Shown: positions 5,341-27,269 of the stretch, piece by piece
Layout: each line of letters opens with the position of its first letter
Numbering within the stretch: the first letter of the stretch is position 1
Assembly (NCBI RefSeq): GCF_004011695.2
Contig: NC_082412.1
Span: forward strand, 1-64,000
Length of the DNA stretch: 64,000 bases
Reading direction: 5' to 3'
From: Ascochyta rabiei
Lineage: Eukaryota; Ascomycota; Dothideomycetes; Pleosporales; Didymellaceae
Notes under the pieces: model-generated
What the model was told of the DNA's origin: nothing
Database searches by the model: none
Seen by the model: the letters and a program-made list of their open reading frames with translations, nothing else
Made by a program: the position numbers and the translations under genes

Positions 5341-5839
5341 AGTGTCTGTGTTGCTATTTGGCTGTTTTGCACTTTCTGACTTGTGATCACCGTGCAGTCG
5401 CAAGTCAGCCTACAGCACGTTTCTCCTGACTTCTCCTGACCTAAGGTTTCGGGTTACGGTTATATCAAACACATTCTTTCTAGTCTACTAAATACGACTG
5501 CACATGCCCCTCCTCCCAAGCATATAGGAAACGACACATCTGGCTCGCGTCTCTCTGGCCCATCTTGATCTTTAATCCGAGCCACTTGTAAAGCTGGAGC
5601 TCATTGCTACCGTGCACAATCGCGGCGTCTTGCATCTGCTGCTCCAGCCATAGCGTGCACATCAGTGGCTGGCAGGCAAGCAGCGCAGCTACTGCTCTCT
5701 GGAGCACTCCATCGTACTGGCAAGGCACATGCATCCCTTGTGTCTTAAACGCACCCTGTATGCTTGTTTCCTCCCACTTGTTGCAGATGGCTTGGGGCGC
5801 CTAGCAGTAAAAACACCGCGCATACTTCTCCCACTTCAC

Positions 5840-7483
5840 TTAGTGCATAGATTTCACCTTAGACTCCATTAATGTCATCTGCGCTCCGCTGGCCTTTGAA
5901 CAGTCCTTCCAGTCGTGGCGCGCCGGGTCAGCCTGAGTGGCTATGCAGATGGCGCACGCATTGCTCCAGCGCTGGAAGTGCTGCTCTAGCCGCTCCAGGT
6001 TATATACTTTTTGTTCCGTCCTTCGCTGTTGCTGGATCTTAACCCTCTGCTCTTTAACGACTATAGCTCGCTCTATACATCTGCGCTGCTCCTCTGCTGC
6101 CACCGCCGCGGTGTCGGCCTGCGTCTCCTCTGGCTCTTCCTGCTCTTCTTCGACGGCTTGTCGCTTGGTACCACCGGGGTGTCGCTCGCATAGATCACAC
6201 TTCGACTCTCCTATCTCGCATTGCTGCCTGTTCTGTCTGCCGTCTATGTGCTTGTCTATCGCGATTTGCTGACAGGATTCGACTGTCATAAACTCCTTTG
6301 CAGGTCGCTCCAGCTTGTAGCCGAGCGCCTTCTCTACCCTCCCCTCTTTCGTTACATAGCACGCTCTCATAACAATAGACTTGCTGTCGAGCCCTGTTCG
6401 TCCCGCCCGGCCGCTCTCTTGCACATATTGGAGCAGCAGGGGACACATGGCAACGTGGATCACCACCCGGACGCCTGCAGCGTCGAGCCCAAGACCTAGC
6501 ATGTTCGTGGCTGTACAAAGCTTCTCTATGCCCAGGGTGAAGCTTCGCACCATGCGTGCCTTTTCCTCGTCTGAGCCTATCTGACGGTAGTATGCAGAGC
6601 ACTGCAGAAGCTTCGCAAGCCGTTTCGTCTCGTCCACAGTTGGACAATAGACGATGATCTGCGCCTTAGGTCCGTACCTACTCCTCTTCGCAGCCACGAG
6701 CTTAATAAGTACTTTTTCTAGCGTGCCACGTGTGTACTCTAGCACCTGGTACGCAATGTTCGTTCGCGTGGTGCGTTCATCGCGGCATATGGTTACGGTC
6801 TGGGCATCGAGCCCTGCGGTGTGCAAGAAGGCGGGCTGCAGCGTGGGCGGCAAGGTTGCAGTCAGGTAGACAACCTGTGTGCCCTTCTCCGTCATCTCCA
6901 CCATCTTGAGGAGGTCTGGCCGCCAGTCCTGTGTCGACTCCAGCAGCACGTGGCACTCGTCTATCACGATACGATCTAGCTGATAGAGCATGCGCTTTTC
7001 GTTAATAAACCTGCCGAACGCCTTCGTGACTGCGCTCTCAGGCGTCACCAGCACAATACGAGCCCAGTACGGCGGTCTTCTTCCATCCCACTTCGCGCAG
7101 GGGATGCCGAGCTGGTCGCAGCGATCTTGCAGATCGTCTCGCAAGGCATTCAACGGAGCCACGACCACGGAGACGCCGCCTAGCGAGACGGACGCGGGCA
7201 GCATGAACAGCATACTCTTGCCGGTGCCAGTAGCCATAACAACTAGCACGCGCAGCCGTCGCTGCATCACAGCCTCGAGGCTTTCTTCTTGCTTGCCACG
7301 ATACTCGGCGTCCGGCCGTCCAGCGAGTCGCCTGAACTCTGCCTTGAGGTCCACCATCGCGAGCGACGACCAGCGCTGGAGCGCCTGCTTCTCTTGCTGC
7401 GCTACCATCTCTGCGCGAACACCGGGGTGCATGCGGCCGTCCTCCCAGGCGGATGCAAACTCCAGCACGCGATGCCAGTCCAT
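5840..7483 (-). other. Intact RecQ-type helicase core within TLH-1
   Basis: About 547 uninterrupted codons starting at ATG 7483 (SMDWHRVLEFASAWEDG follows). All superfamily 2 motifs are visible: Walker A MATGTGKSMLF, motif Ia APLNALRDDLQDRC, Ib LVTPESAV, DECH box, TATLPP, IVYCPTVDETKRL, motif V with GLGLDAAGVRVVIHV, and motif VI QESGRAGRTG. A cysteine cluster (KCDLCERHPGG) and a coiled, glutamine-rich stretch follow. It is cut from its upstream domains by a TAG and a frameshift, and ends at a TAA where TLH-2 has tryptophan. It would be an ATP-dependent DNA-unwinding module if expressed alone. No promoter of its own was recognised. Confidence 0.8.
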
Positions 7484-7623
7484 GCTCACCCGCCGGAACT
7501 CCTCCGCTCAGCCATGGTCTGAAAGGGAGACTCCATCATGGAGCGGCCGTAGTTGCCCTCCTCTGTTTCAAGGCTGTGGCCGGACTGCAACGCTTGCGCG
7601 TTGCTCTTCGCCGGCGCTTTGTT

Positions 7624-8745
7624 CTAGTAGAGCACTTCCAACCAGTCGCGTGCTTGTCCATCTCTTGCCAGCTCTCGGTGGATGGCTGGGTAGGCATGCC
7701 GCCAGGCGCGGGTGCCGAGAGCGGTGTTCATGTACTGAAAGGTCTGCTCGCGCAGGACACGGCGTATGCGATCGGTGCCCCAGTACCCGTCTGGGTTAGC
7801 GGATCGTGCCTTCTCACGGTCGGCTTCGCCGTACTTGTCTCCGTTGTCGCTCTCTTCGCTATCGCTCTCGTCGCCCCACTGCTCCTCCAGCTCTGGCTCC
7901 CAGATGAAAGCGGTAGGGCGGGCAACGCCATTGTGCAGCATCTGGAGATCATCTATGAACGGTCGACCGAGCCTGAGGAAGTACACCACCAGCTCACCCA
8001 CCTCCCGGGGAACATAGCGGTGGATCGTCTTAACACGCTTGCTAAAGCTATACCCCTTGTGGTACGTGGTGGTAAAGGATACCAGGCCACCCTCTACAAA
8101 CACCCCCCGATACCCCACCCCGTCTGCACTGTTCTCGCACTGTATCGAGGTAATCTCTGTCCCGCGACCAGGCCCGCCGCCAGACATGTGAACAAGCGTG
8201 AAGAGGCCTTCTTTAAACCGACGCACTCCTTTCATGTACCTAGCTACAGCGTCATCGCGCCATAGCGTCCGTTCCGGCCGTTGTGTGCTATCTATCCCAC
8301 GAATGAATCTCTCCCTTAGCGGAGCCTCGTCCAACACCCGGTCTAGAAGCCAGTCTTGCCATCTATCTAGCTGGTTGTCGGGGTGCTTTAGAAAGCTCCA
8401 GCCCGTAGCCAGCTCGGCTGGCTGATCGACGAGTTTGTCCACGGACACCTCTGGAAGCGGGGTAGTCCCGGGTCGCACGCAACCCCTTTCGTCTAGATCC
8501 AAGAGTAGGACGTCCTTAAATAGCTGCAACCGCACCGTCTCGCAGAGTCCCTTCACCATCGACCGGAGATCGGCTAGCGAAAAGCTCTGCTTGTCAATGA
8601 GAAGCCGATCTCCATCCCACGACACGATACCGGGAGTATTACGTCGCTTTGCCTGTGTTCTAGCTAGCGTACGCAAGCGGAGCATTCGATTCATAGGACT
8701 AGGTGTGCCTTTGAAGTCGGACAGCGTCATAAACCGTTCAGACAT
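7624..8745 (-). other. Tyrosine-recombinase-like domain of TLH-1
   Basis: An uninterrupted 373-codon segment. Its layout resembles a tyrosine recombinase catalytic domain: GGGPGRGTEITSIQ (first Arg box), TTYHKGYSFSKRVK (Lys on a beta hairpin), HRYVPREVGELVVYFL, then GTRAWRHAYPAI (like the H-x-x-R or R-H box), and a final tyrosine immediately before the TAG. The same landmarks occur in TLH-2 and, partly, in TLH-3 (YHKGY, AAYREIAIGI). The assignment rests on motif order read by eye; an alternative is a degenerate, non-catalytic DNA-binding domain. Confidence 0.45.
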
Positions 8746-10089
8746 GTCTTTAACTAGCTCATACGCAGTAGGTGCTGTACAAGGGTCTTTCTAAAGCGCT
8801 TTATCTCGCTGGCAGCGGGCATGATGCACTACGAGCGCTTTCGAGGTAGTGATCAAAGCAGACAGCGTTGGCGAGAACTCGTGCGCCGGAACCCACCCAC
8901 CGCCATGGTGATCAGGCTTAAGGCCGAGGACAGCCACTCCGCTCAGCAGTGCGCTCTCGTGCTCGTCGCCAGTCAGGCTGTGGTTGAGCAAGGCGATCCA
9001 AAAGCGCAGGCATCGCTCTTCCAGTTTCTCTTTCTTCGCAGCGTCGTCTGAGCGGGCTATTTGCTGGAGTGACACCAAGAGGGCGTCTTGCGTGCTGGTA
9101 AGTTTGTATGGCGGCCGCTCGACCTGGTCATATGTGCGCCACAGGTAGCAGAGGATGCTCACCAGCTTCTGGCTGTACTTCTTGATCGTACCGACTCAAT
9201 GCCTAGCGTAGAAGGGCCGCTCGTTCGATTCTGCGCCCGCCTCACGTCGCTCGATAATCTCCAGTGCGAGTCTGCCGACAACCTCAGCTTGGCTGCTATC
9301 GAACGCTTTTCGTATCAGCCGCTCCATAGCTTTGCAAACATCGCGTAAGCCCGTGTCGTTAAACGCCACTTCTTCCTTCCCACGCGCGTCTACCTCCCCA
9401 CCAGCTAGCTGTTTAGCGCGCAGAAGTGCCGCCCTTGGGATACCTTGTAGGTGCGGGACCCATTCTGTGAGCTCTAGCCACGGATCAGCCTGCGAACGGA
9501 TGCCCTCTTTAATCTTATCCTGCGCTGCTGCTGCCTTACGCTCTTCTCGCTGATGCTGGCGATCTGCCTTCACTCTCTGGGAGATGTCTGCTAGAGTCGC
9601 AGCTCCAACGCTCGTCTCGACTGCAACATACGCCGGCCAGCCAACAGCTCTGAACAAGCGCTGGCAGGATTGGCTGTCTCGCCATACTCGGTTGCGTGAG
9701 TGCTTGCTCTTTTGCCTTATATCTCCCCCTCGCTTTTGTTCGTTCACCCAGCCATGCTCATCCTTGCAATGTTTCTGCATGCCCTGCAGCGAGATGCAGG
9801 TATACCAACAACGCTCCAACAAGCATACCAGCCCGTCTTCTCGGCTTTTTAGACCAAAGACGGGCTCCTTAGCCGGCCTTGGTACACGCACGTCTCCTGG
9901 ACTCCACGCAAGGTTTGGTAGCGCGCGTACAGCTGCCGCCAGGCTCTTGCGCGTAGCGACTGTGACCTTGGGATGGCGCTCTTTGAGGTGCGTAACGATC
10001 TGCGCTGGTGGAATAGCAGTGGCACATGGTTTACAAACTACGACTCGAAGTTCAGGCCGGTGTTCAAACAGCTGTGCAAATAGTTCCAT

Positions 10090-10386
10090 GGTGTAAGGAG
10101 CAGAAGGGACACAAGTGGGCGCTATGCAACACGTCCGTTGGCCTAGTGTTTGCTATCCCCTGGTATATTAATTGACAGACTGTGTATCAATCTTGCTTTT
10201 GGTTTAATTGCGCTCCCAGCTCCGCTAACGCTGGTTGGTGAGGGCGTCGTGGTACATCCGTGCGCGGCCTGACTTTCGGTGCCGCGGTGTGACCGCGTCA
10301 GAACCTCAACAACACCCAACCCCCTTTCCGCACAACCTTTGTCCGAACTTCCGCTCGCAACCTTATTTGCAGTACACAAGTCGATA
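10090..10386. promoter_or_regulatory. Divergent intergenic region between TLH-1 and partner A1
   Basis: The 297 bp between the two start codons must hold both promoters. The equivalent gaps are 281 bp in E2 and 218 bp in the third unit, so the head-to-head spacing is conserved. No convincing TATA box or binding site was identified. An upstream ATG in frame with A1 at 10279 lies inside it, but other copies support the ATG at 10387. Confidence 0.5.
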
Positions 10387-12111
10387 ATGCACTGGTTGGC
10401 AGCATTAGACAGCGCCGCAGAGCGGTTTGATGGCGGTCGTCGGAGCTTTCCTCTGGCCAGCGAAGCTGACTTCGTTCGCAACTACGCGTACGAGCCGCCG
10501 AATGAGGACTACAAGAAGCTCTTCTTCTGCCGAGCGACCATCTCACGCTCGCAGCGTGATCCAGGTGCTCGTCCGCACAGCGCAGGATGGCTGATCCCCA
10601 CCCGTGACGATGCCAGCGTCTGCAAGCCCGTCTTCATTGCCCACTCCGTCTTGTCAGCGATCTGGCTTCTGCGCGAGACGCTCGCCGACGACGTCCTGCC
10701 TGACAATATCTGGGATCGTCTGGTCTGCGCGGCCGAGTCGCTTGCGGAGGACGGGATGGAAGAGCCGCCGTCTGCGCAGAAGCCCTTTGCTTCCCCTTCA
10801 CAACAGGCCTCCGCTCCACCCCCGCAACAAAAGAAGCGGCCACACCTATCTGCGCCGGCCCCTACACTAAAGCGCGCTCGAACAACCACCAATGAGACAC
10901 ATCCAGCCAGCCCTCAGCTGTCACAGCCTAGCGAACCGGATGAGCAGCTGAAAGACTCCCCTCTGCACATCACTACTATCTCTAACAACAACCGCCGTGC
11001 GGAGCAAAAACGCAGCAGGACACTCGCCACTTCGCGTGCGAAGAAGCGGCTTGCCCTTGGTCTGGTAGCACCTGGCGACAAGGCTCCTCTTCCAGAGCAG
11101 GCTGCCTACACCTCTATTGTGCAAAAGGACAAGTCCGTTGTCGCCTGGATCATCAAGCAGCCGGTCTCCGATGACACGGACTTCTACAGCTCCACCCAAA
11201 CTCCCTACCTCACGGCCTGCACCCTTCTAGAGAAAGCGCGCGTGCTTGGAAACCAGTCCTCTCGGTACCACGCTGCCCAGTTCCTGCAGGCTTGGCGAGA
11301 ACGTGGCTCACCCTTCAGAGGTGGCGGCGAGCTCGCTGGCAGCCAGAGCAGGACCGGTGCGGGAGCTAAGCGCTTGCAGCTGCTGAGTGTGCGCAACGAT
11401 GCTGACAGGGATTTCTGCTTTGCCTGGAACATGTGCACACGTTACGAAGCAGAGCTAGCAGCTGTCTATATCAAGTCTCGATGGGCGTCAGCTCTCCTAG
11501 GTCAAGCATACTCTAACAAGATAGCGCAGATCTGGCATAACAACTTTGTATCTAGCAACAACAGGACGCGAAATTGATACGGAAAGGGACAGATCCGCAC
11601 AGAGGCAGTTGCAGCGCTAGTAGAGTTAGTTAGTCCCAATGCTACTAAGAAGGACAAGCAGGTGTTTAGACGACGGTTAGGCCAAGCCATGCGCTGGTAC
11701 TCCATTAGTCAGGAGCTAGGCTGGGGCATTCTGACCCTGATACCACACGACGAGATTGCGAATCACTGGATAGAACGCACCCTCTGTGTAGGCCAGCTAC
11801 ATGTCTGGATTAAGCTACTTAAGAAGGAGTGTCCAGACATTTGTGCAGCTAGCAAGGCACTTAAGAACTGGTTAGGGCTAGAGGGAATTGCTGGCGGGCC
11901 CATCAACGAGAAGAAAACGCTGAGCATTGAGGCGGAGGCGCCAGCAACCATCTACGAGGTGGAAGAGATTCAAGACAGCAAAGACGACGAAACTGACAAC
12001 AGCGTTGACGACAGCACCAGAGAGCAAAGTCATGCTTCGCCGAAGAGTCCTACGCCAGCTCCGCGGTTGCGTCAGCTAACTTTGCTTGAATTGTTCCATC
12101 CTGTAGAGTAG
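10387..12111 (+). pseudogene. Partner A1: conserved protein of unknown function, one in-frame stop
   Basis: A frame of 575 codons with a single TGA at 11575-11577; A2 has CGA (Arg) there, so this is a C to T change. The start was chosen at ATG 10387 (MHWLAALDSAAERF) because all copies align from this point; an in-frame upstream ATG exists at 10279. Conserved blocks among copies: YEPPNEDYKKLFFCRA (about residue 40), SAGWLIP, CKPVFIAHSVLSAIWLLRE, a basic ISNNNRRAEQKRSR segment, YIKSRWASALLGQAY, WLGLEGIAGG, and a C-terminal LRQLTLLELF. The middle is proline/glutamine-rich and probably disordered, and the tail is acidic. I recognise no enzyme or domain. Constant pairing with TLH suggests a joint function. 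This is the best preserved of four copies. Confidence 0.7.
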
Positions 12112-12313: not shown

Positions 12314-12421
12314 GCGAACAAATTCACGCTGAAAAAGCGAACAAATACAGTCGAGTGTCTGTGCTCACGCTAAAATTTACATAGGCAAAGCGAACAAATA
12401 CACTGTCTTTGTTCGTATAAT
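12314..12421. repeat. E1 right-end direct repeats (GCGAACAAAT)
   Basis: GCGAACAAAT occurs at 12314 and again near 12338 and 12390, followed by an inverted TTTGTTCG at 12408-12415 and the end word TTCGTATAAT. Short direct repeats next to an element end are typical recombinase- or transposase-binding arrays. The repeats in E2 occupy the same place but have a different sequence. Confidence 0.5.
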
Positions 12422-12597
12422 CACTGGGAGGGGTCTTGGTTGGCTGGTACTTATTGTTGTGCCGTTCCCTGGCACAGGACCATAGCACTACGCTACAGAA
12501 TAAGCACAGTAGTGGCTGTGTTGCAAAAAAACAACTGTTCTATCTACTGTAGATCCACGCCAACAACGTGTATAGTCTGACTAGGGTGATAACTAAT

Positions 12598-13707
12598 CTA
12601 ATCTATTATTAATCTGTTATTAGTTCGGCATGCCCTAATGTACGTATACTTGACGAGCAATGTAGACGCATGTCCTGGCGTAACAGTGAAAGTCTGCTTA
12701 GAGGAGAACTCCTTGTATTCCTCTTTCAAGGAGGCCTCCGTTAATGAAAACTGGTAATTAAGACTGATGCTTGCGCTGAAGGCCTTAATTCCAACTAAGG
12801 CTGAGACTTCTACGCCAGCTAAATGGCTTATCTCCTTTGTTTTTGTCTCTGATACACCCTTTGTAACTGTTATTTCCTCCAGAAATAGAAGTATATCGTG
12901 GTTCTTGTGCGACTTGAACACGTACCACAATGTGTGCTTGCTAAGCAAGATAAAAGGATCAGAAATTAGGCCCAGTCTCTCCCTTTTGTCGGCTGCAAAG
13001 AAGGCGACGTAGGGTAGAATCACTTCAGCCTGCTTTTTCTCGCCAAATGTTTCTCCCTTATTAGGGAATTTGTCTTTTGTAAACTTGGGTTTTTCGCTTT
13101 CAAAATTGTTGTAGTTCTTTGGGCAGGGTAGTACCAAGACCTTTGCAAGACTAACAGGAGGCATTTTGTAACAATTAGTAGGGCCAAGTTGAAATGTATT
13201 AGTGAAAACTGGGAGCTTTATGCTGCCATACTGAACAGGGGGCAGGGCCACTAGGTAAATAGAGCAATTCAGCTTAACCCCTGACTTCGTGTCGTCCCAG
13301 ATACGGTCCGACCCAAAATCTAAATCTATGATTAGGTCGAAACGGACACACCATATCTTATTGGTTGAGGGAGTTTTATAGCTTCCCGTGCAAATGTCCC
13401 CTAGAGAGAGGTAACCTAGAGGGGCTATAGGTCTCCAGAATAAGCCGTTAGATTTCCCCTTACTACCCTCGTCGTTCCAGATAAAGTAGTAGCCAGTAGG
13501 ACTGGCAACTGCAGGTTTCCCTTCGGCTTTTGGATTGTTGCCAACTAAGAGAGTTGCTCGCTTGCTGGTCAGACCGTCCTTATATTTCGAGGTCGCAAAA
13601 GACCCCAGGGGACGCATATCACCCTGTGATTTTGCATAATAGACATCGACAGCTCTAGTAGCACCGGTGCCCCTGTTGTTGTACCTCCACTCCCAGTCTA
13701 AAGTCAT
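12598..13707 (-). CDS. Vps62-type protein, intact single-exon gene
   Basis: 369 codons, ATG 13707 to TAG 12598, no interruptions. The N-terminal half has repeats like the Vps62 (DUF946) family: TGYYFIWNDEGSKGKSN, then LFWRPIAPLGYLSLGDI, and a second IWDD...SGVKLNCSIYLV block near residue 145. The C-terminal third (about residues 270-365) alternates polar and hydrophobic residues, with ALVGIKAFSASISLNY and TFTVTPGHASTLLVKYTY. This is reminiscent of beta-rich pore-forming (aerolysin-like) folds, but that is only an impression. No signal peptide is evident. It sits alone between two decayed units, with no RIP signature, so it may be under selection or recently arrived. Role unknown. Confidence 0.75.
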   Translation of the reverse strand: MTLDWEWRYNNRGTGATRAVDVYYAKSQGDMRPLGSFATSKYKDGLTSKRATLLVGNNPKAEGKPAVASPTGYYFIWNDEGSKGKSNGLFWRPIAPLGYLSLGDICTGSYKTPSTNKIWCVRFDLIIDLDFGSDRIWDDTKSGVKLNCSIYLVALPPVQYGSIKLPVFTNTFQLGPTNCYKMPPVSLAKVLVLPCPKNYNNFESEKPKFTKDKFPNKGETFGEKKQAEVILPYVAFFAADKRERLGLISDPFILLSKHTLWYVFKSHKNHDILLFLEEITVTKGVSETKTKEISHLAGVEVSALVGIKAFSASISLNYQFSLTEASLKEEYKEFSSKQTFTVTPGHASTLLVKYTYIRACRTNNRLIID

Positions 13708-13913
13708 AGTGACCCTTAGGTCACCATAGTCTTAAGTTTTGTTGAATTTCACCATTGTTTGAAAGTTGTGTAAGTAACTACCTAGACTTGGCTTTAAATG
13801 TGGAAGGTGGATAAGAGGGGTGTAAAGAAGTACCAAAGACTCTTAGAGTTGCGTTATTAGGAGAAAGCGAACTGATTTAAAGCAGTAGTGATTAGAATGT
13901 AAGAATTGCTAGC

Positions 13914-13926
13914 CCCTTATATACGT
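13914..13926 (-). promoter_or_regulatory. TATA-like box upstream of the Vps62-type gene
   Basis: On the - strand the sequence reads GTATATAAGGGG, about 205 bp before the ATG at 13707. Position and sequence suit a core promoter; there is no other support. Confidence 0.35.
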
Positions 13927-13939
13927 TTCTGTTATCTAA

Positions 13940-14844
13940 AATAGAACAAGCGTTTCTAAGACAGAACAGTTGACTATTCCAGGATTTAACTTCTGTGTAA
14001 CTTCTAAAAAGATTATATAAGTACTTGCACAATCAACCAGGTTTTAGTTAACTGTCTCCAATTAATCAGAAGAAACCTGTTAAGGTAGTGTTAGGTAGTA
14101 CAAAGGTTGCAGTGAGGAACTATACAGCCTAGCAGTGCACATCTACAGCAAGGAATGTGTAGGCGTGCAACCTTAAAGTCAGAGCCGTTATTTGGAAGCA
14201 GTAGGTTAGGTGCCCTGTTTCAAATTCGTTGTGCACACTTGCACCCCAAAAATCGTTTCAATAAAGGATACTAAAACCACGTGCAGCAGTACAACAGAAT
14301 ACAGGGCGACGATCTAGATTAATGCAGGACGAAAAGAGCAGCTAGAGGGCGATTCCGTGTGCCTAGACCAAAGCCTGTTCGGCCATACCGGACGATGCTG
14401 TAAATAGCATAAAGAACTAGATGAGCTGGCAACTTACCCTATACAACGAAACTGGAGTTAATTATTTACATCCTTTAGTAAGAAGGGTGGTACATGGTAT
14501 ACTGTACGCGCTATGTTGTGCTCTGGACTAGTACACTGTAAATGGCTCGTAGCGCCGACTAGCAGTGTCTCACAGAGAAGTTCGGCTCTGGTCTTTTCGG
14601 GGAGACGCTCGGGTGGGGTCTAGGACCACTTGATATGACTATACAACGCAATTTGGTTAGATTTCTCTGTTTTGACTAGCACAACTCCTAAGTTACATTA
14701 CTTCAACTTGCTAACGTCATCGACCACCAAGCCGGCCACATTACTGAACCGACTACCTTGTGCACCTACCCACCCTTTAAACTAGAATATCTCCACAACT
14801 ACATATCCAAATCAGGTAACAAATAGAAAGAATTAATCGCCTAA
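13940..14844. other. Gene-free segment
   Basis: No reading frame longer than chance, no repeat family recognised and no tRNA cloverleaf seen. Base composition is close to that of the neighbouring Vps62-type gene rather than to the RIP-mutated regions. Confidence 0.4.
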
Positions 14845-15213: not shown

Positions 15214-15378
15214 CTGCCAGTACTTTCAACGTGCGACATAAACAAGGGCTCACTGCTTACTTCTTTCTCTTTCTTAATGCACTGGCTCTCTGTGCGACAC
15301 CTGGAGGGCCTGCCGACTACCTCTTCCTCACCCGCGGACGATAACTTATAGGAACAAGATTCTGCAAGTCAGCACCTA

Positions 15379-18300
15379 TCATCTACAGCTCTGTACATGC
15401 CCCTCCTCCTAAGTATACAGTAAACAGCACATATAGCTTACGTCTTTCTTACTTATCTTTGTTTTTAGTCCAAGCCATTTGCGAAGCTGCTTGTTGTAGC
15501 TTCCCTGCACAATTGCTGCTTCTTACATCTGCTGCTCAAGCCAGGGCCTGCATGCTGACTCTCGCAAAGCAAGCAGCGCAGCTGCCGCCCGCTGCAACAC
15601 GTCTACATACTGGCACAGTGCGTTCCTCCTCCTCGCAAACGCGCCTGGCGTATCTGTCTCTTCCCATCTGTTGCAAAGTGCCTGCGGCGCCCAGCAGTAG
15701 TTACAACGTGCGTAACCTTCCCACTTCACCCAGTGCATCTACCAGATCTTCTCCTGTACAGCGTTGATCTGCGCTTCGCTGGCGTTTTGGCAGTGCTCCT
15801 ACCTGTGATCTGCTAACTCGGCGTGGGCGGCCATGCAGATGACACATGCATTGCTCCAGCGATCAAGATGCTGCCTGAGTCGCTCCAGCTGGTAGCCTGC
15901 TTGCTCTGTCTTCCGTTGCAGCTGGATCTCACTCTTCCGCTCCTCAAGTGCTGCAAGCTCCTCGAGTTCCTCGCGCCGCGCTTTTGCGGCCGCAGCAGCG
16001 GTTATTGACACCTGACCTCGTGCGTCTTGCTCCTTCTCTGCAGCTTTTCGCTTCACCCCGCGTGGGAGCTGCTCGCACAAATCACACTTTGCCTCCCCTG
16101 CCTCGCATTGCTGCCTATCTTGCCTTCCGTCCATATGCCTGTCTACAGCGACTCTCCGGCACAATTCTGCAGACAAGAAGTCTTTGGCGGCCAGTTCCAA
16201 CTTATAGCCGAGCGACTTCTCTACGTGTCCCCCTCTAGCCTGCCAGCACCCTCTTAGGACAATAGACTCGCTGCTTGCACCTGTTCGTCCAGCTCGACCG
16301 CTCTCTTGAACGTACTGGAGCAGCAGGCGACACATAGAAACGTGGATCACAACCCAGACACCTGGGGCATCCAGGCCAAGACTAAGCATGCTGGTGGCCG
16401 TGCATAGCTTCTCTAGCCCTGATGTGAAGTTGCGGACCATACGCGCCTTGTCGTTGTCAGCAGCCATCTCGCGGTAGTACGCTGAGCACTGGAGGAGCTT
16501 TGCTAACCGCTTGGTCTCCTCTACGCTTGTACAAAACACAAGGATCTGCGCTTCAGTTCCGTATCTCTTCCTCTTTGCTGCAATAAGCGTAGTGAGCACG
16601 CTGTCTAGCGTGCCACGCTCGTAGTCCAGCACCTGGTAAGCAATGTTCGTTCGCGCGGTGCGCTCATTGCGGCAGATGGTCAAGGTCTTTAGGTTAAGCC
16701 CTGCGGTCTGCAGGAAGGCAGGCTGCAGCGTGGGCGGCAGGGTCGCTGTAAGGTAGATAACCTGCGTGCCCTTGTCCGTCATCTCTGTCAGCTTAAGGAC
16801 GTCTGGTCGCCAGGTTGCGTTCGACTCCAGCAGCACGTGGCACTTGTCAATTACAATGCGGTCTAGCTGTTGCATTATACGCTTCTTGTCGATAAACCGG
16901 CTAAAGGCCTTTGTGACTGCGCTCTCAGGCGTCACCAGCACGATGCGAGCCCAGTACGGCGGCCTCCTCCCGTCCCACTTCGCGCAGGGGATGCCTAGCT
17001 GATCGCAGCGGTCCTGCAGACTGTCTCGCAGAGCGTTGAGCGGCGCGATAACAATAGTAACGCCGCCTGGCGAGACGGACGCGGGCAGCATGAACAGCAT
17101 ACTCTTGCCCGTACCTGTAGCCATTACAGCTAGCACGCGCAGTTGTCGCTGCACAATCGCCTGGAGGCATTCCTCCTGCTTGCCCTGATACTCCGCGTCT
17201 GGTTGTCCAACAAGCCGTCTAAACTCAAGCTTAAGGTCTGCTGCCGCAAGTGCTGACCAGCGCTGAAGCGCCTGTTTCTCTTGCTGCGCGAGCATCTCTG
17301 CTCGGACCCCAGGGTGCATGCGGCCGTCCTCCCAGGCAGAGGCAAACTCCAGCACGCGGTGCCAATCCATGCTCACTCGCCGAAAGTTCTCACGCTCTGC
17401 CATGGTCTGGAAGGGCGACTCCTTCATAGAGCGGCCGTAGTTCATCTCCTCTGTCTGCAGCGTGTGGCCCGACTGCAGCGCGCGCGCATCGTCCAGCATA
17501 AGCTCCTTGCCCTAGTAGAGCAACTCAAGAAAATCGCGCGCTTGCCCGTCCCTTGCCAGCTCTCGATGAATAGCAGGATAAGCGTGCCGCCATGCGTGAG
17601 TACCAAGAGCAGCGCTTATGTAGCAGAAAGTCTGCTTGCGCAGGACGCGGCGTATGCGGTCAGTACCCCAGTATCCGTCTAGGTTAGCTGACTTGGGCTT
17701 CTGCTGGCTCGACTGGCTGAGCTCCTCTCTATCGTCACTGCTATCGCTATCGCTATCGCTCTCTCCATCATCCCCCCACTGCTCCTCTGGCTCTGGCTCC
17801 CAGATGAAGGCCGTGCAACGGGTGACGTCATTGTGCAGCATCTGCAGGGTGTTAATGAATGGTCGACCAAGCCTAAGAAAGTAGACAACCAGCTCACTTA
17901 CCTCTCGCGGCACGTAGCGGTGAGTTGTTTTAACATGCTTGCTGAAGCTGTACCCTTTGTGGTAGGTGGTGGTAAAGGAGAGCAGCCCCCCCTCTGCGAA
18001 TACGCCTTGGTAGCCTACGCCTTCCGCGCTGTTCTCGCACTGTATCGAGGTGATCTCTGTCCCTCGACCGGGTCCGCCGCCAGACAGGTGGACAAGCGCG
18101 AAGAGGCTCTCTTTGAATCTGCGCACGCCCCGCATGTACTCGCACACGGCATAGTCACGCCACAGCGCACGTGCTGGCTGCTGGCTGCTGTCTACTCCGC
18201 AGAGGAACCTATCTCGCAGCGTTGCTTCAGCCAACACGCGGTCAAGAAGCCACTTTGGCCAGTCGTCTAGCTTGTTGCTGGGATGCTTCAAGAAACTCCA

Positions 18301-19989
18301 GCCAGTAGCCAGCTCAGCGGGATGATCGACGAGTCTGTCTATGGACAGCCCGGGCAGCGCAGTGGTGCCCGGACGAACACAGTCCCGCTCGTCAAGGTCT
18401 AACAGCAGAACGTCTTTCAGCAGCTGCAGCCGCACAGTCTTACAGAGCCCCTTTACCATAGACCGCAGATCAGCGAGCGTGAAGCTCTGCTTGTTAACAA
18501 GAAGGCGGTCTCTGTCCCACGCCACTATACCAGACGTGGTGTGCCTCTTCGCTTCTGTTCGAGCAAGCGTGCGTAGACGCAGCATCCGGTTCATTAGACT
18601 TGGGGTGCCCCTGTAGTCACACAGCGTCAGGAATCGCTCTAACATCTCCCTTACCAGCTCGTACGCAGTAGGTGCTGTTTCTGGATCTATAAGGAGCGCT
18701 TCTTTATGTTAGCAGTGCGCGTGATGTATAACAAGCGCCTTAGAGGTAGTAATAAGAGCAGACAATGTTGGCGAGAACTCGTGCGCGGGAATCCATCCAC
18801 CACCGTGGTGATCGTCCTTCAGCCCCAGAACAGCAACACCGCTCAGCAATGCGCTCTCTTGCTTGTTACCAGACAGGCTGTGGTCTAGGAGAGCGATCCA
18901 GAGCTGCAGACAACCTGCTTCTAGCTGCTCGCTATTCCCAGCATTTTCTGAACGCGCAATCTGCTGAAGCGACCGCAGGAGCGCATCTTGTTTGTCCGTG
19001 AGCTAGTAAGGCGGCCGCTCTGCCTGCTTGTAGGTGCGCCACAGGTAGCAGAGGACCTGAATCAGCTTCTGGCTGTATTTCTTGATCGTACCCACTTTAT
19101 GGCCTAAGTAGAACAGGCGCTTGTTAGACTCTGCGCCTGTCTCGCGTTGCTCAATAATCTCTCGCACTGGCCGACTTATAAGCTTAGGCTGGCTACTGTA
19201 GAACGCTTTGCGTATAAGCCGCCGCATCGCCTTACACACATCTTCTAGGTCAGATTTAAGGACCTCCTTTCCCTTTCCCTTGCGTGCGTCTTCTGCCTCG
19301 CCTGGGAGGTGTCTAGCGTACAGGAGCGTCGCCCTAGAGAAACCCTTCAGATGAGGGATCCACTCTGTCAGCTCCAGCCACGGGTCAGCTTGCTGGCGAC
19401 TCGACTCTTTGATCAGCTCCTGCGCTGCTGCTGCCTGTTGTTTCTCTTCTATGCGCTGAAGGTCTGCCTTAACTATTTGAGAGATGTCCTCTGCGTGTAG
19501 GCTATTAGCGCGGGTCTCGACAGCTATGTAGGCAGGCCAACCAGCAGCCTTGAACAGACGCTGGCACAACTGACCATCTCTCCACAGTCAATTGCTTGAT
19601 TGCTTCCTCTTACTTCTGGCGTCGCTGCCCTGTTTCTGGTTGTTGACCCAGCCATGCTTGTCTGTACAATAGGCTTAGATGCTTCTTAGCGTTGTGCAGG
19701 TGTACAAGCAATCCCCCCACGTACAACAGAACGCATCTAAGCAGCTACCTAGGGTAGAGATAGATTCTTTAGCTACTCTTGAGATGCGCACGTCTGCTGG
19801 TCTCTAGGCGAGGTTGGACAGCGTGTGTGCAGCTGCACCAACGTCCTTACGGTCTCCTACAGGCACCTTTAGGTGGCGCTCTTTCAGATACCTTACTATC
19901 TGTAGTAGGGGTATTGCTATCGCGCAAGGTCTGCAAACAACAACGCGAACATCAGGATAGTGTTAAAAGAGCTGTGTAAATATGTCTAT
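15379..19989 (-). pseudogene. TLH-2: second zinc finger, recombinase-like and RecQ helicase gene (broken)
   Basis: One frame of 1,537 codons runs from 19989 to the TGA at 15379-15381. It has about eleven internal stops, including TAG 19003-19005, a TAA near 18703, TAG 17512-17514 and a stop at 15799-15801. The start codon is changed to ATA. The segment 15799-17499 (566 codons) is an open helicase core with MATGTGKSMLF, TATLPP and QESGRAGRTG, but motif II reads DKCH instead of DECH, so the catalytic glutamate is lost by a G to A change. The recombinase-like part (17512-18645, 377 codons) is open. The C-terminus preserves tryptophans (HWVKW, NYCWAPQ) that are stops in TLH-1. Length is equal to TLH-1 apart from the latter's single base loss. 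Confidence 0.85.
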
Positions 19990-20270: not shown

Positions 20271-22010
20271 ATGCACTAGTCCACTGCACTGTACAAGGCT
20301 GCTGAGGCATTTGACAGCAGCCCTTAGAGCTTCCCCCTGGCTAGTGAGGCTGGTGTTGCCCGCAAGCATGGGTACGAACCACCGAACGAAGACTACAAGA
20401 AGCTGTTCTTCTGTCGTACTGCTGCATCACGCTCACAGCGCAATCTAGACGCTGGCGCTCACAGTGCAGGATGGCTGATTCCTCACCCTACCAACAACAG
20501 CCTCTGCAAGCCGGTGTTCGTCGCCCACTCTATCCTGTCGGCCATCTGGCTGCTGCGCGAGACGCTTGCTGATGACGCTCTCTCCAACGACGGCTGGGAA
20601 CGTCTCGTCTGCGCGGCCTAGTCGCTCACGGAAGATGGCATAATCGATCCGCCCTCTGCGCAGAAAGCGTCTGCATTGCCTCTGATGCACCGCAAGCGAC
20701 CAGCGTCCCCTGCCCAGGCGTCGCCAGCAAAGCGTGCCTAAGAAGAAGGAGGCATGTCTCTTCCAGCCAGCCCTAAGTTGGACGGGCCGCCAGCTAAGCA
20801 AGTGATGGAAGAGCAGCACACTGTTACCACAATAACCAACCGTAACCAGGCCGCTGAGCTAAAACGCGGGAGAGACGCCGAGGCGGCCCAGGCTAAGCGC
20901 AACCTGTCTCTCGGCCTCTTAGTGCCAGACAAGAACGCGTTGAACGCTAAGCGTGGCGCTTATGCTTTAATGTCACCTAATAACAGCAAGCTTATATTAT
21001 AGCTTTTTAAACAGGATGCTGTTAATAAAGACAAAAAGAAGACATAATTCTACAAGGCTGTTAAAACGCCCTACTTAAGAGCCCGCGACTTCATTGACAA
21101 GGCCTGGGCGCTTAGAAGCCTGTCCTCCCAGGAACACGCCGTTCGCCTTATAAGAGACTGGCGAGATGTAGGAAATCTCTTTAGGAAGGATATACCTGGG
21201 CACTTTATAAACCTAATAACACCTACACAGCCGCCTACAACTAAATCCTTACAGCAGATCAGCGTGGATGATGCATTCTGCCATGCTTGGGACCGGTGCA
21301 GAGTCTTTAACAAAGTAACTAAGTCCATAAACATTAAGTACAGGTGGGCACATGCCCTTATAGGCAAGGCAAGAGCAGAGAAACTAGCACAGCTTGAGCG
21401 CAGCGACAAGCTTTTAAGCAGCAACAAGACAAGCCGATTCGGCAAGGGGCAGCGACGGACAGAGGCTTTAAACTCCCTAATGTTGTTGGTGAACCCTAAG
21501 CCCAACCCGTCTAAGCAAGAGCGGGACGCCTTTCAGGACTGCATAGGCAAAGCAGTTAAGTAGTATAGAATCGCTAAAGGCCTAGGCTAGGGACTGTTGC
21601 TGATTATGCCGGTAGACGTGATATCCAACACTTGGATTAAAAACACTATCCGCTCTTAGGGCGTTAAGGTCTTTATTAAGCTAGTTAAGAGGGACCGTCC
21701 AGATGTTTATCTTGCAGCTAGGCAATTTAAGAGATGGTTGGGCCCAGAGGGCATGGCAGGCGGCAATATTAGACAACACCAACCGCTAAGTATTAAGTCT
21801 AGGCTGCCAGACATTGAGCGCTTGGTACGTAGGTCAGAAGGAATTGCAGACAGTGAGGATGATACAGGAGACGACAGCAAGGACGACAGCAGCAATAGCG
21901 AAAACGATGGGCGTGTTAAGATTATGCCGTCGCAGTCTTGTTCAAGAAGCGCGCCTCCTGCATCCCTACGCTAGACAACATTGCCTAAGTTGTTTAAAGC
22001 TATAGTGTAA
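20271..22010 (+). pseudogene. Partner A2 (decayed copy)
   Basis: A 580-codon frame without frameshift, from ATG 20271 to TAA 22008-22010. The third codon is TAG where A1 has TGG (Trp). Further stops lie near 20315, 20620, 20740, 21000, 21560 and 21972. Family landmarks are clear: YEPPNEDYKKLFFCR, SAGWLIP, CKPVFVAHSILSAIWLLRE, NIKYRWAHALIGKA, WLGPEGMAGG and an acidic serine-rich tail. The residue at the A1 stop is arginine here (SRFGKG). Decay is by point mutations only, mostly TAG and TAA. The protein cannot be made as it stands. Confidence 0.7.
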
Positions 22011-22276: not shown

Positions 22277-22382
22277 AAAGGTTTGCACGTTAAAGATACA
22301 AAGGTTTGCACGTCAGGGTCAGTGCACACGCTAAGTATTTACTAGGGAATATAAAGGTTTACACTTCTAACCTTCGTATAAT
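22277..22382. repeat. E2 right-end direct repeats (AAAGGTTTGCACGT)
   Basis: AAAGGTTTGCACGT at 22277-22290 and 22300-22313, a third diverged AAAGGTTTACACTT from 22353, then the end word TTCGTATAAT at 22373-22382. They hold the same position as the GCGAACAAAT repeats of E1. Confidence 0.5.
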
Positions 22383-22387
22383 GATAT

Positions 22388-25260
22388 AAGAACTTGGCTT
22401 TCTTGCCCTTCATTCGCTTGAGTTGCGCTGCCGGGTCCATCTTCCTCAGCCGCTCCAGCCTCTCGATCCTCGCCTCGTCGGCCTCGCTCTCGAACAGCGC
22501 CTGCTTGCGCTTCTTCACGTCTGCCGATGCGTCTACAGCCGACTAAAAACCCAAAAACCAGTGCCAATCAGTGCTTGAGTTGCAGAACAGCTGCCTTCTG
22601 TTGGCTGTAACACCTGCTATCTCTATGATGCCGCGTGCGTACACCATACCTGCTACGTGCGACATGTGTCTAGACTGCTTGTCTTAAATAATGGCCGCCA
22701 TGTTCTCCTCCTTCCACTCCTCGTTTTCCTCGCCTTCCTTGGCGGCGAACGCTGTTAAGCCGCGCAAAAATTGCTGGCTAATGCCAATGGCGATCTCACG
22801 GTACGCTGCAATCGTCAACTCTTGTTTAAGCCCGATTTGACTCTTGCGCTTCAACGTCTCCCGCACACGCTCTAAAGTCCATTTGCGTCCATTTAGGTCA
22901 GTAGGCCACAAGTAGGATAAAATCGCCTCCTTCTCCCACACTATCGCCTCTAACTGCTGCTAGAACGGCAGCACCAACCATACGTACCACACCAGCAGCT
23001 CACCCACCTCACGTGGCAAGTACCAATGGATGATCTTGACGTCGCCACTGACGGCGTACCCCTTGTGGTATCGTGTAACAAACACAACTATGCCGTCCTT
23101 AATAAATATGTTGCGGTGCCTGCCCTTGATCGTGTTGCTGTGTCAGACGCTTAATATCTCAGTCGCCTGCGTAGGTTGTCCTGCCGTCATGTGCATAAGC
23201 GCGAGCAGCTTCTCCCTGAACGCAACCACACGGTCCATGTACTGCTCTACTTCATTCCTGTTAATCCTAGAACAGGTGGCTGGCTTGATGAACCGCTCCC
23301 GCATTGTAGCGTCTTGCCCCACTCGTTCGAACAACCACCTCTCTCTATCTACAGGCATGCGGGTGCGCTGGTCTTTTAAAAAGTTCCACCTGGGTCAATT
23401 GTCGGTCGGGTTGTCGCGCAGCTGCTCCCACGGAATCTGGGGGACTTAATCTGCCGTCTGCCTGTTGCAAAACAGCAGCTCCTTAACCAGCATCTGCTTG
23501 TTCTCTGCTTGCATCCCGTGCACTATGCTGCAGAACTGGGCTATAGTGAAGTGCACGTTCTTATACAGCAGCTCGTCCCTACCTATCCACTTAACGTTCC
23601 CTCGCGCAGTAGTGTTAAAATGCACCTTCAGCCCGTACGTACGCAAGTCGAGCATCTACTGCATTAGGCTGTAGCTGCCTCGTACCATGAACCTGTCCAT
23701 TATCTGCTACACAAACTCTAAGCAGCCTTTTAGTCAACGCAGCCTGGGGTTATTGCTGCTGCTGTCGCTCCCCCTGTACGCGCTGTCGTCGTCAAACACC
23801 TCCTCTTCAAACGGCTCAGATAGCTCGAGTGCGTGTTATACAACCATAAAACAGGTAATTTTAATCACTAACAACAATATCGGCGGGTACAGCTCGGCGT
23901 CCTTCCAGCCGTCCTCTTTGACGCTGAGCACAGCTAACGCACACACCAACGCGCAGTCGTACTCCTTGCGGCAGATGCGCTGGTTAAGCAGCGCAATGCA
24001 AAACATTAAGCACGCTTTCTTAATCAGCGTCAGCTTTGCGTGCTTAGGCTTGTTCTTGGGCTCGTTCTTGGGCTTGTTGTTGCACTCGGACGGGTCCTGC
24101 TCGTCGTCGAGTTCATCGATCATCATCTCGTCCTCCTCCTCCTCTTCCTCCTCGTCCTCATCCTGGTCCTCGTCCGCTACCTCCATCTCTGCCCCGCCTA
24201 CGTCTCTCTCTGCCTGCTCAATCAATGCCTCCCATGCCTCGCGCTGCTGCTGTGTGAAGCGGTACTTGGGGCTGTTCCAACAGTGCTCCCTCTGCGTCCT
24301 TGCGAAAAACATCAGTATCTGCTTCTACAGGCGTGACTGCTCTTTAATCGACTTCTTGTCTATGTACGCCTGCAGCGGTGTGTACCTAGTCTGGTGCTTC
24401 TCTGTACAAATAGCCTCTATGCGCACAAATATGCCTGTCCGCTTAATAACAGACGTCTGGCTCACGCAGGCCAGTCCATCTATTGCGCTCCAAATCGCAG
24501 CCTTAACAGGCTCCTTATCTTTCTCTAGGTCTATATTAGGCTCCTTAATACTCGCCAGCAATTTAGGACGATCCAGTTTGTTTAAGTACGGCAGCCACCT
24601 AGTCCGCTCCAGCCATAGGGCCGCCTTGTCCTTCTCCCCGTCTTTGATCGTTGTCTTTGCCTGGTTCTTGACGTTGGCCCACGTCTTGGCCATCTCTTCG
24701 CCAACGCGCGCCTACGCTGCCTCGCCCTCTATAGGGACGGGCTGCGGGCCGCTGTCTGGGGTGTGACGCACTTCAAAGTACTGCAATCCGTGCTGGCTGC
24801 CAAAAAGCCGCTGGCAGTGTACGCGCTTGCAGCCGTCTTCCATCTAGGCTTGTAACGTCCCTGCCCGAGTTCAGCTAGAACGTCCTTGCCTTTTTCCCAG
24901 CGACTAGCTGTTGTGGTCTTTGCGCCAGTGCTTTTTAATCAAGTTAACAGTTCTTGCAATATGCTAGCATTTTTTAGGCTTAAGTTGGCACAGTAAGCTG
25001 TTGTTGTATACTGGCAGCTGGGGGATAGGCTGCACGTTGTTGTCTGGTACCGTCCACTCGCTGGGGTACTGTAGCAAGCCCGCCTACTGACAGACGGCAT
25101 CCCCTACAGCTCTAACGTTCTTTAGCGGCCTCTTATGTTGCTTCTGCAAGTGGCTCTTAATCTAGTCCGGCCATACTGCGTACCGGCACTCCTTGCACAC
25201 TGCTACCTGGTACTCAGCCAAGTGCTCAAAGTACTGATGCTCAACGGTGGCTTCTGACAT
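22388..25260 (-). pseudogene. TLH-3: helicase-less paralog of a different TLH subfamily
   Basis: One frame from ATG 25260 (MSEATVEHQYFEHLAEYQ) with about fifteen stops. Parts in order: C2H2-like AVCKECRYAVWPD near the N-terminus; WLERTRWLPYL; an acidic run (24100-24200); the recombinase-like block, with MHMTAGQPTQATEI (Arg lost), VTRYHKGYAVSGDVK, YLPREVGELLVWY and AAYREIAIGISQQFL; then MDPAAQLKRMKGKKAKF, where similarity stops at about 22390. In intact relatives the RecQ domain follows directly. It is cut exactly at the E2 right end. The large + strand frame at 23687-24766 is a shadow of this gene. Confidence 0.75.
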
Positions 25261-25478
25261 GTTAGCGGTCCTCTGTAAGCCTCTGTGTGTGTGTTTTTTT
25301 TTTTCCTTAAGGCGACTGCTCTTATCTCTGAATTGTGTTAAGTTTCGCACCCTAGCTTATGCGCCCGCTCATGTTGTACAGGCTGATCTCCGTTCAGTCC
25401 GTTACCCTGGTCAGGGGCTAAACCTAACGAACATCCTTCTTCTTCTGCTGTATCTCCTATATCAACAAACAAACAGTT

Positions 25479-27269
25479 ATGTTACTATCTAATCTACCCT
25501 GGATCTCCGCGTTGGAAGATGCCGCCAAGCAATTCGATGGCGGGCCCTGGAGCTTCCCGCTAGCCAGCGAGTTGAGCTTTGCCCACAGGCTCGCATACGA
25601 CCCGCCAAACCTAGACTACTAAAAGCTGTTTTAGAACAAGGCCACTGTCTTAGACTTGCAGCGTGATGCTCTATTGCACCCGCACAGCGCAGGCTAGCTA
25701 GTTCCAGACAAGACGAGTGTCTGCAAGCCTGTCTTTGTTGCCTACTTGGTGCTGTCGGCGATATGGCTGTTGAGGGAGACGCTCGACGAGGACGCGCTGC
25801 CTGCTGATGCTTAGGCCCGGTTGGTCTCTGCAGCGCAGGATCTTGCCAGCAGCCCAAGCAACAGCTTCTAGAAGGAACCCCCTTTAGCGCAGCAGCCCTG
25901 TAATTCCCTACCACTATCAACAAAGCGTGCTGCTGCATCCAGCTCAGCGCGGCCGTTGAAGCGCCTCCGACAAGCCACTGAGCCTCCTAGCCCTGCGACG
26001 CCGCTGGAAGCAGAGGACGAAGCGGAGGAATCTGAGCAGCTTGCGCCGCCCTGCGAACCTAAGGCGGCCAAGGACCCTAAAGAGCCCGTCCATGGACAGG
26101 TTGGACAGGAGGAACCCGCCCAGATCACGAGCGTCTCTAACAAAAACCGCCGTGCTAAGCAGGAGCGCGCCAGGAAGCTGGAGCTTATGCGAGCGCAGAA
26201 GAAACAGGACCTTAGGTTGGTGCCGCCGCCCAAGTCGGCATCCCGCAGGGAACACGGTGCCTATGCCTCCATCTCGCGGCGGGATAAGCTGTTCATCTCT
26301 TAGATCCTCAAGCAGCCAGTTGACAACGACGACCTGTACAGCAGTACCGCAACGCCTTACCTGACAGCTTCTGGCATGCTTAAAAAGGCCGACTCTATCG
26401 GCAACACTACCTCCCAGGCCTCTGCGGCTGCGTTTCTGCGGAGCTGGCGCACACAAGGCTCACCCTTTACGCAGGAGTCCGTTAAGGATCGCCCGCCCGC
26501 TTCCTCGCGCACCCGCTGGTCGCTGTCGCAGAAGAATAGCTCCTCGACTGTGCCGAAGAGCGCGCTTGCCTCCGCCTGGAGCCTGTGCAATCGCTACAAG
26601 CAGGAGTTGGATATTATCTATATCAAGTACCGCTGGGCTATAGCTTTCCTTAGCAAGGCCTACACTAAGAGGATGGACCAGATTAAGGAGCAAGACGTCG
26701 CCCGCAGCAGGGATGCTAAGAACCAAGGCGGCAGGGGCAAAGTCAGCTCTGAGGCCATGGACGCCCTGCTGCTGTCCGCCACTGCCACGTCGGGGCCTCA
26801 GCAGCGTCAGCAATTCAAGAAGCAGCTGCACTAAGCGCTCCGCTAGTACAAAGCAGCCAAGCAGCTAGGCTAGGGCATGCTCTGCCTGATGCTGCACAAC
26901 ATTATCTCTAACTTGTGGGTAGAGAACAATCTCTGCGTCCCCTTCTGGCATATCTGGCTTAAGTTGGTTGTAGAGGTGAATCTGGAGGCCTACAAAGCAA
27001 GCATGGCCTTAGACGCCTGGCTAGGCTTGGAAGGCATCTCTGGCAGATCTATCAGCGAGAAGGCAACGCTGTCAATCAAGGCAGACACGCCGACACCGGC
27101 GACGCAAGTAGAGGAGATTAAAGACAGCGAGCTGGAAGACGGCGAAGATGGTGACGACCACAGCGTCGAGCCTGCGCCCTCCCAAAGGACTACAAACAGC
27201 CCTGCGGCCACCTGTGCAATGCGCCAGCTTACCTTAATTAAGCTCTGTAAGCCTTTTGCAGGCACATAG
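25479..27269 (+). pseudogene. Partner A3 (decayed copy)
   Basis: 597 codons in one frame from ATG 25479 (MLLSNLPWISALEDAAKQF) to TAG 27269, with about nine internal stops, mostly TAG. Shared landmarks: YDPPNLDY, CKPVFVAYLVLSAIWLLRE, SVSNKNRRAKQERARK, YIKYRWAIAFLSKAY, WLGLEGISGRSISEK, and a C-terminal MRQLTLIKL. It lies head-to-head with TLH-3, 218 bp apart, just like the pairs in E1 and E2. It is the most diverged of the three readable copies, in line with TLH-3 belonging to a different subfamily: each partner seems to evolve with its own helicase gene. Confidence 0.65.

What the first reader, a model, noticed from the sequence alone, without database searches (positions are those of the whole stretch)
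5391..27269. A repeated divergent two-gene unit: giant helicase fusion plus an unknown partner gene
Three times in a row the same layout appears: TLH on - and partner A on +, 218-297 bp apart. Two copies are 7.0 kb each with collinear content. The partner protein has the same landmarks in all copies but no family I know. A gene pair kept together through duplication in two subfamilies suggests an operating two-component element rather than random neighbours.
Basis: partly seen in the sequence, partly recalled or inferred. Interest (0 to 1): 0.9.

Follow-up and report, generated by a model that had tools for sequence, protein, structure and literature searches.

The report
Chromosome-end-capping helicase elements in a fungus
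At most chromosome ends of this fungus sit stacked copies of DNA elements, each coding for a helicase fused to a possible DNA-cutting enzyme, that look as if they were joined, always the same way round and always at the same base, onto broken chromosome ends; this would be an unusual way for mobile DNA to live at telomeres and rebuild them.

Summary
A terminal unit (telomere, 3.6 kb without one G, GC-rich repeats, TLH, A; 12.43 kb here) recurs at 32 chromosome ends (A 97-99% identical) and stops at one base, window 12430; beyond it flanks differ (29 distinct junctions among 33 copies read). Three further families (F2, F3, A-less class III) have their own fixed inner ends. All 76 A hits and all subtelomeric TLH hits share one orientation, within 43.3 kb of contig ends. 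Recipients are cut at varying points, distal parts gone; the window stacks at least five units. Best reading: one-ended, telomere-bearing DNA elements added onto broken ends. TLH is OrsD + a tyrosine-recombinase-like domain (residue pattern; statistical test negative) + RecQ helicase. A is under purifying selection but optional: about 19 of 91 TLH loci lack it. How joining happens is inferred. My literature searches (open-licence papers only) listed nothing describing the fixed ends or this domain.

The parts
1..100 (.). telomere repeats (CCCTAA), outer end of unit U1
   Evidence: arrays also at other contig ends in the part of the list shown
101..3682 (.). tract with no G on the + strand; part of the shared unit
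   Evidence: first G at 3683; window 1-4680 vs C9:7-4700 98.96% identical (only this one other end was compared here)
4720..5301 (.). GC-rich 12-24 bp tandem repeats between the no-G tract and TLH
   Evidence: partly kept in internal copies at C2R and C12L
5480..10089 (-). U1 TLH: OrsD (10089-9196), tyrosine-recombinase-like middle (about 8745-7500), RecQ helicase (7483-5840), C-terminal tail; this copy has stops and a frameshift
   Evidence: OrsD 1.9e-21, DEAD 5e-18; RecQ structures 2.2e-21 for the homologous C22 copy; frames; stop codon read
10387..12111 (+). U1 partner A (574 codons; TGA at 11575 in this copy; intact at C9)
12391..12415 (.). inverted repeat CGAACAAA-TACACTGTC-TTTGTTCG just inside the inner end
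   Evidence: shuffle p 0.004; placed
12416..12430 (.). U1 inner terminus TATAATCACTGGGAG|
   Evidence: 33 of 33 copies read, three with one base changed; 37 places in genome with up to 3 mismatches, 0 for the reversed pattern
12431..14712 (.). recipient segment V with a Vps62-like gene (12598-13707, -); first ~60 bp match a dispersed repeat
   Evidence: Vps62 5.8e-14; long matches only at C8L and C11L
15391..19986 (-). U2 TLH (older, with stops): OrsD, recombinase-like, RecQ
20271..21977 (+). U2 partner A (stops inside)
22354..22390 (.). U2 inner end: AAGGTT-TACACTTCT-AACCTT + CGTATAATGATATAAG| (one copy only; end set by where U3 coding homology starts)
22391..25260 (-). U3 TLH, cut after the recombinase-like domain; helicase missing
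25479..27269 (+). U3 partner A (stops inside)
27613..27649 (.). U3 inner end: CAACCATT-GG-AATGGTTG + GCCTACCCATCTTGGTTAG|
   Evidence: family 3 ends sharp in 14 of 14 rows, three subfamily versions
27650..29220 (-). U4: class III TLH cut inside the recombinase-like region, no partner A
29706..29746 (.). U4 inner end: AACTGGAGG-AAGTACTG-CCTCCAGTT + GCAGCCCTGGGATAG|
   Evidence: same end in 8 of 8 class III loci aligned; p 0.0007
29747..31491 (-). U5: further OrsD-type gene, broken; short telomere-like repeats beyond it at 31735 and 31893
   Evidence: OrsD 1.3e-4, below the gathering score

Best explanation
These are families of one-ended DNA mobile elements that live as chromosome ends. Each runs from the telomere inward through TLH (and, in families 1-3, partner A) to a fixed, family-specific inner terminus ending in AG, in most families with a short inverted repeat 15-21 nt before it. 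Shown: fixed inner ends, one orientation, subtelomeric confinement, stacked units, recipients cut at varying points with their distal part missing, selection on both genes. Inferred: TLH's tyrosine-recombinase-like domain cuts at the inner terminus, its RecQ helicase unwinds or copies the strand out to the telomere (so no second end is needed), and the freed telomere-bearing end is joined to an eroded or broken chromosome end, capping it. A probably assists (DNA binding or replication coupling). RIP then mutates the copies and older units are buried by later additions.
For: Family 1 inner edge the same in 33 of 33 copies with different DNA beyond; 29 distinct junctions, the same recipient DNA cut at different points. 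Equally sharp ends in F2 (4 of 4), F3 (14 of 14) and class III (8 of 8). Orientation: A 76/76, recombinase-like 117/117, helicase 79/79, OrsD 91/92; the exception is a 39-residue match in a chromosome interior. Truncated recipients: U3 and U4 in the window, an A gene at C1L cut at residue 107. Of 421 variants among 16 copies 408 are C>T/G>A, 399 of them at CpG/CpA: RIP on almost identical copies. Third-position excess in TLH and A.
Against: No free form or new addition was seen. The recombinase domain is not found by Pfam, PDB or profile comparison: HHalign 18.3 against 30 column-shuffled controls with mean 15.8 and maximum 30.0, and against XerD alone the best alignment was not at the motifs; fold predictions failed; the first arginine motif is missing in three decayed copies. 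Inverted repeat absent near the F2 end, not significant in F3a. In 2 of 3 clear cases the uncut recipient has a G just before the junction, so a one-base overlap with ...GAG| is possible. None of 16 family-1 TLH copies read in full is intact. One genome only. Near-identity of copies could also come from later gene conversion.
Confidence: 0.6

Rival explanations
1. Ordinary subtelomere exchange: host repair (break-induced replication, telomere-failure repair) copies existing subtelomeres onto failed ends, as for yeast Y' elements or in Pyricularia; TLH and A are passengers.
For: Near-identity and stacking are typical of such repair; three groups of ends share their junction ({C22L,C5R}, {C17L,C20R,C22R}, {C6R,C11R}), so some whole ends were copied. 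Repair after telomere failure in Pyricularia captures subterminal DNA duplicatively (passages of PMC8381367).
Against: That process is described there as apparently indiscriminate; here the added segment stops at the same base within each of four families although most recipients are unrelated, and the overlap seen at the junction is at most one base where the uncut recipient is known.
Confidence: 0.22
2. A conventional two-ended transposon (Helitron-, Crypton- or Starship-like) that prefers subtelomeres; the outer end was lost or overlooked.
For: The inner end resembles a Helitron 3' end in plan (hairpin then short tail; recalled); the recombinase-like domain recalls Cryptons and Starships.
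Against: One orientation throughout; no outer boundary short of the telomere between the two ends compared over the outer 4.7 kb or among 16 copies inward of it; no element in chromosome interiors among the scored hits; the lost helicase halves of U3 and U4 are nowhere in the window.
Confidence: 0.08
3. A linear, telomere-bearing extrachromosomal element that sometimes fuses to chromosome ends by end joining; TLH and A serve its replication rather than cutting chromosomal copies.
For: Explains the fixed end and the lack of homology equally well; several inner ends finish in TTAG, like a telomere seed.
Against: No free molecule seen; no telomere array at the junctions read, apart from one flank that begins CCCTAACCC.
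Confidence: 0.1

Closest known systems
Telomere-linked helicase (TLH) genes of fungi (Magnaporthe, Ustilago, Metarhizium, Fusarium, Agaricus)
   Same: RecQ-type helicase gene close to the telomere, many similar copies, truncated copies, OrsD noted in Ustilago (passages of PMC10532341, PMC12857005, PMC7473861)
   Different: here a recombinase-like domain between OrsD and helicase, a divergent partner gene, exact family-specific inner ends; the Agaricus paper says no domain besides the helicase core was found in subtelomeric RecQ proteins
Saccharomyces Y' elements (recalled)
   Same: helicase-coding terminal repeats in tandem, one orientation
   Different: Y' spread by homologous recombination; here at most one base of overlap seen at the junction and a fixed inner base
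Telomere-adding retroelements: Drosophila HeT-A/TART (recalled), MoTeRs/FoTeRs (passages), telomeric Penelope-like elements (passages)
   Same: live at chromosome ends, fixed orientation, stacked and truncated units
   Different: those use reverse transcriptase; the genes identified in these units are TLH and A, and A matches no Pfam family
Helitrons (recalled, and passages of PMC4522978)
   Same: helicase plus DNA-cutting domain; hairpin shortly before a defined end; no target duplication
   Different: recombinase-like domain and RecQ-type helicase, ends not CTRR, no second end, found only at chromosome termini
Cryptons and Starships (tyrosine-recombinase elements)
   Same: possible tyrosine recombinase as the mobilising enzyme
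   Different: no PF00589 match in the genome; the 16 PF11917 (Starship captain) hits are all chromosome-internal

Membership tests
Fungal TLH gene family | RecQ-family helicase close to telomeres in many copies | tested here: met
Tyrosine recombinase | conserved R...K...xxR...H...Y in order (order recalled) | tested here: met
   R and K in 6 of 6 rows; second R, H and Y in 5 of 5 rows that reach them; rows 26-34% identical to the first except one at 77%, and two class II-type rows close to each other. Against: first R motif not matched in three decayed copies, L025, L026 and window U3
Tyrosine recombinase | significant profile or fold similarity to known members | tested here: inconclusive
   motifs align in register with XerD in the mixed profile but the score does not beat shuffled controls, and with XerD alone the best alignment lies elsewhere; no Pfam/PDB hit; fold prediction failed
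Starship | DUF3435 captain in the element | tested here: not met
   16 hits, none telomeric
Helitron | 3' end CTRR and Pif1-type helicase | tested here: not met
   ends GGGAG, GTTAG, GATAG; helicase closest to RecQ
Helitron | HUH Rep nuclease | tested here: inconclusive
   none in the Pfam scans of the pieces given; no dedicated search
Y' element | spread by homologous recombination between chromosome ends | tested here: inconclusive
   three groups of shared junctions fit it, 29 distinct junctions do not
Telomeric retroelement | reverse transcriptase | tested here: inconclusive
   none in Pfam scans of TLH pieces, A and the 12598-13707 ORF; no dedicated search of the whole unit
Telomere-capping mobile element | new copies seen to be added to a chromosome end | not testable with these tools
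   needs strains or experiments

The most novel reading that the evidence does not exclude
A new class of transposon: DNA-only, one-ended elements whose other end is the telomere itself, moved by a recombinase-RecQ fusion that cuts at the inner terminus and pastes a ready-made telomere onto broken ends. Fungal telomere-linked helicases in general would then be the machinery of such elements, not host helicases.
Probability: 0.42. Interest if true: 0.93.

Novelty: new variant of a known kind. Interest (0 to 1): 0.82.

Why it matters
Telomere-linked helicases have been catalogued in fungi since 1998 and their function is still called unclear (passages of PMC11893274). Exact inner ends, fixed orientation and a recombinase-like domain would turn them from odd host genes into parts of a mobile element, and give a testable route by which eukaryotic chromosome ends can be rebuilt without reverse transcription or long homology. 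It would also make stacked, truncated subtelomeres a readable record of past end losses, in a fungus whose telomeric helicase genes hold variants picked out in a study of isolate aggressiveness.

Tried and rejected
In one search my pattern for the C-terminal motifs was spaced wrongly and matched no row; it says nothing. In one search the non-coding control gave no alignment, and the A comparison U2-U3 covers only about 59 codons. The inner end of the double-recombinase class II elements was not reached (homology runs on past 1.8 kb).

Considered and rejected: two-ended insertion (no outer end, one orientation); A as obligatory component (class III); assembly artefact as source of the ends (different flanks at 33 copies, same ends in older diverged copies). 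My first wording that G-free recipients could offer no homology at all was withdrawn. A C-terminal RQxTLxxLF-like motif of A recalls a PCNA-binding box; recalled, not tested.

Dropped or limited: one search stopped on an error and was repeated. Genome searches score only the best candidates (76 of 106; 110 of 142; 79 of 138), so totals are lower bounds; one search lists only the first places. The length of contig C4 was a guess, so distances there are about 1.6 kb short. TLH frames were checked in 16 left-arm copies only; PacBio indels may exaggerate frameshifts. L159, a ninth class III-like locus (about 70% identical), does not share the aligned end and is left out of '8 of 8'.
Full report
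Where the window lies. It is the left end of contig C8 of a 40.9 Mb, 23-contig genome. Contig sizes (C1 3,374,210; C21 1,223,078) are close to those printed for Ascochyta rabiei ArME14 (3,373,759 and 1,223,093; passages of PMC7341154). A later paper lists five missense variants of that strain in telomeric DNA helicase genes (passages of PMC11893274); four of the five positions fall inside TLH hits here (C5, C14 twice, C20). The identification is an inference from these.

Observation. TLH on - and A on + face each other three times. U1 and U2 TLH align over 4.3 kb at 74.5%. Scored hits in the genome: 76 for A, 117 recombinase-like, 79 helicase, 92 OrsD (lower bounds). All lie within 43.3 kb of a contig end except one 39-residue OrsD match inside C15, and all the subtelomeric ones share one orientation: TLH towards the telomere, A away from it. 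They occupy 41 contig ends.

The unit has one exact end. A is 97-99% identical at 32 chromosome ends, mostly 10.3-10.4 kb from the end, nearer at a few (C13L, C14R, C11R, C9R). Sixteen left-arm copies are 97-99% alike up to window 12430 and fall to background at once beyond it. The junctions of these and of 17 right-arm copies (one of them internal, C2:2816553) show the same terminus TATAATCACTGGGAG, three with one base changed, and differing DNA after it. The terminus with up to 3 mismatches occurs 37 times in the genome, its reversed control never. Outward no other boundary appeared: window 1-4680 and C9:7-4700 are 98.96% identical (one comparison). So the unit is the end of the chromosome.

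Independent joinings. Among 33 flanks three groups share their junction, leaving 29 distinct ones. Several flanks are the same pyrimidine-rich DNA entered at different points, for example C13L, C22L/C5R and C20L. Twelve of 33 have no G in their first 60 bases. In three pairs the uncut recipient can be read with a clear offset; in two of them the base before the junction is G, the only G in that 200-nt flank, and in the third it is A. So a one-base overlap with the terminal G, or a G left as a scar by a lost element, is possible; long homology is not seen. At C1L the unit is joined to the inside of an A gene at residue 107; at C11L a Vps62-bearing segment is joined to the inside of another A gene.

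Other families do the same. Family 3 (9 + 3 + 2 rows of three subfamilies, window U3 among them) ends at GGGATAG, TTGGTTAG or TTAGGATAG; family 2 (4 of 4) at GTTAG. TLHs without A (class III, 8 of 8, window U4 among them) end at GGATAG about 0.5 kb upstream of the TLH start. A palindrome lies 15-21 nt before the end in families 1, 3b, 3c and class III (shuffle p 0.004, 0.004, 0.035, 0.0007), weakly in 3a (0.24) and not in family 2 (0.998), where only a long-loop repeat was found. C6L and C4R carry telomere repeats and have as outermost A a copy 47-48% identical to family 1 (at C6L with a family 3 terminus, L050), so more than one family can be terminal.

The window as a stack. U1 1-12430; a segment V 12431-14712; U2 to 22390; U3 22391-27649, whose TLH lost its helicase; U4 27650-29746, whose TLH lost more; U5 from 29747, another OrsD-type gene. 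A class III helicase query finds in the window only the U1 and U2 helicases and the part of U3 before its helicase, as expected if distal parts are lost before the next unit is added.

The proteins. Open pieces give OrsD, then about 430 residues without a Pfam family, then a helicase closest to RecQ, RECQ1, RECQ5 and WRN structures. Across TLH classes the middle keeps PxRxxE, YxK, [WY]R[HE], GH or SH, and a tyrosine in the order of tyrosine recombinases (order and roles recalled). The statistical test was negative and the fold prediction failed, so I call it recombinase-like. Class II TLHs carry two such stretches. A has no recognised domain. Differences between U1, U2 and U3 pile up at third codon positions (0.40-0.49 against 0.12-0.24 at positions 1 and 2) in TLH and A (the non-coding control gave no alignment).

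Age. Of 421 variants among 16 family 1 copies 408 are C>T or G>A, 399 of these in CpG or CpA context, while CpC and CpT are about as common in the background: RIP on copies that were nearly identical, hence a recent spread or recent homogenisation. Internal copies whose A is 82-93% identical to A1 keep the same terminus with at most one change, so the same end was used earlier too.

Mechanism. Shown: fixed end, orientation, truncation of recipients, stacking, selection. Inferred: that TLH makes the cut, that its helicase frees or copies the strand out to the telomere, and that end joining completes the addition. The main alternative, apparently indiscriminate repair of failed telomeres as described for Pyricularia (passages of PMC8381367), does not predict a fixed inner base. 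A linear free form that fuses to ends fits nearly as well.

Print. No paper of the library holds both 'telomere-linked helicase' and 'tyrosine recombinase'; the listings show, by title and start of abstract, none that describes such ends. The library holds open-licence papers only; key TLH papers (Magnaporthe 2002, 2006, 2009; Metarhizium 2005; Fusarium 2024) were not read, so prior description there cannot be excluded. The Agaricus paper says that no domain besides the helicase core was found in subtelomeric RecQ proteins (passages).

Limits.

Noticed in passing
window 101-3682: 3.58 kb of subtelomeric DNA without a single G on the + strand (first G at 3683), shared with C9L; 12 of 33 family 1 recipients also begin in such DNA. 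It looks like decayed telomere repeat; origin unexplained.
   Followed up: partly
flanks L010 (position 140) and L012/L030 (position 79): In otherwise G-free recipient DNA the only G within 200 nt sits exactly where, on another chromosome, a family 1 element is joined: one-base overlap, or a scar left by a lost element.
   Followed up: partly
window 12431-14712 and C11:8036-10316: A segment with a Vps62-like gene, 97% alike and long only at these two ends, stops at the same inner base in both but next to different DNA; perhaps another capping segment.
   Followed up: partly
C12:26602-35110 and C5:2352086-2360594: An older A gene split by a ~6.8 kb insertion with a 4 bp overlap of query positions (target duplication?), at two chromosome ends.
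   Followed up: no
C3L, C12L, C13L, C16R, C20L, C22L, 4.9-20.4 kb from the end: TLH class with two recombinase-like stretches, no OrsD hit and no A hit; upstream DNA 95-97% alike.
   Followed up: partly
partner A, last ~15 residues: C-terminal R-Q-x-[TM]-L-x-[EK]-L-[FC] in the A copies of families 1-3 that I looked at; recalls a PCNA-binding box, not tested.
   Followed up: no
window 35632-58567: Several pairs of dispersed repeats in the AT-rich inner half (for example 50099-50978 and 57456-56576 inverted, 93%).
   Followed up: no
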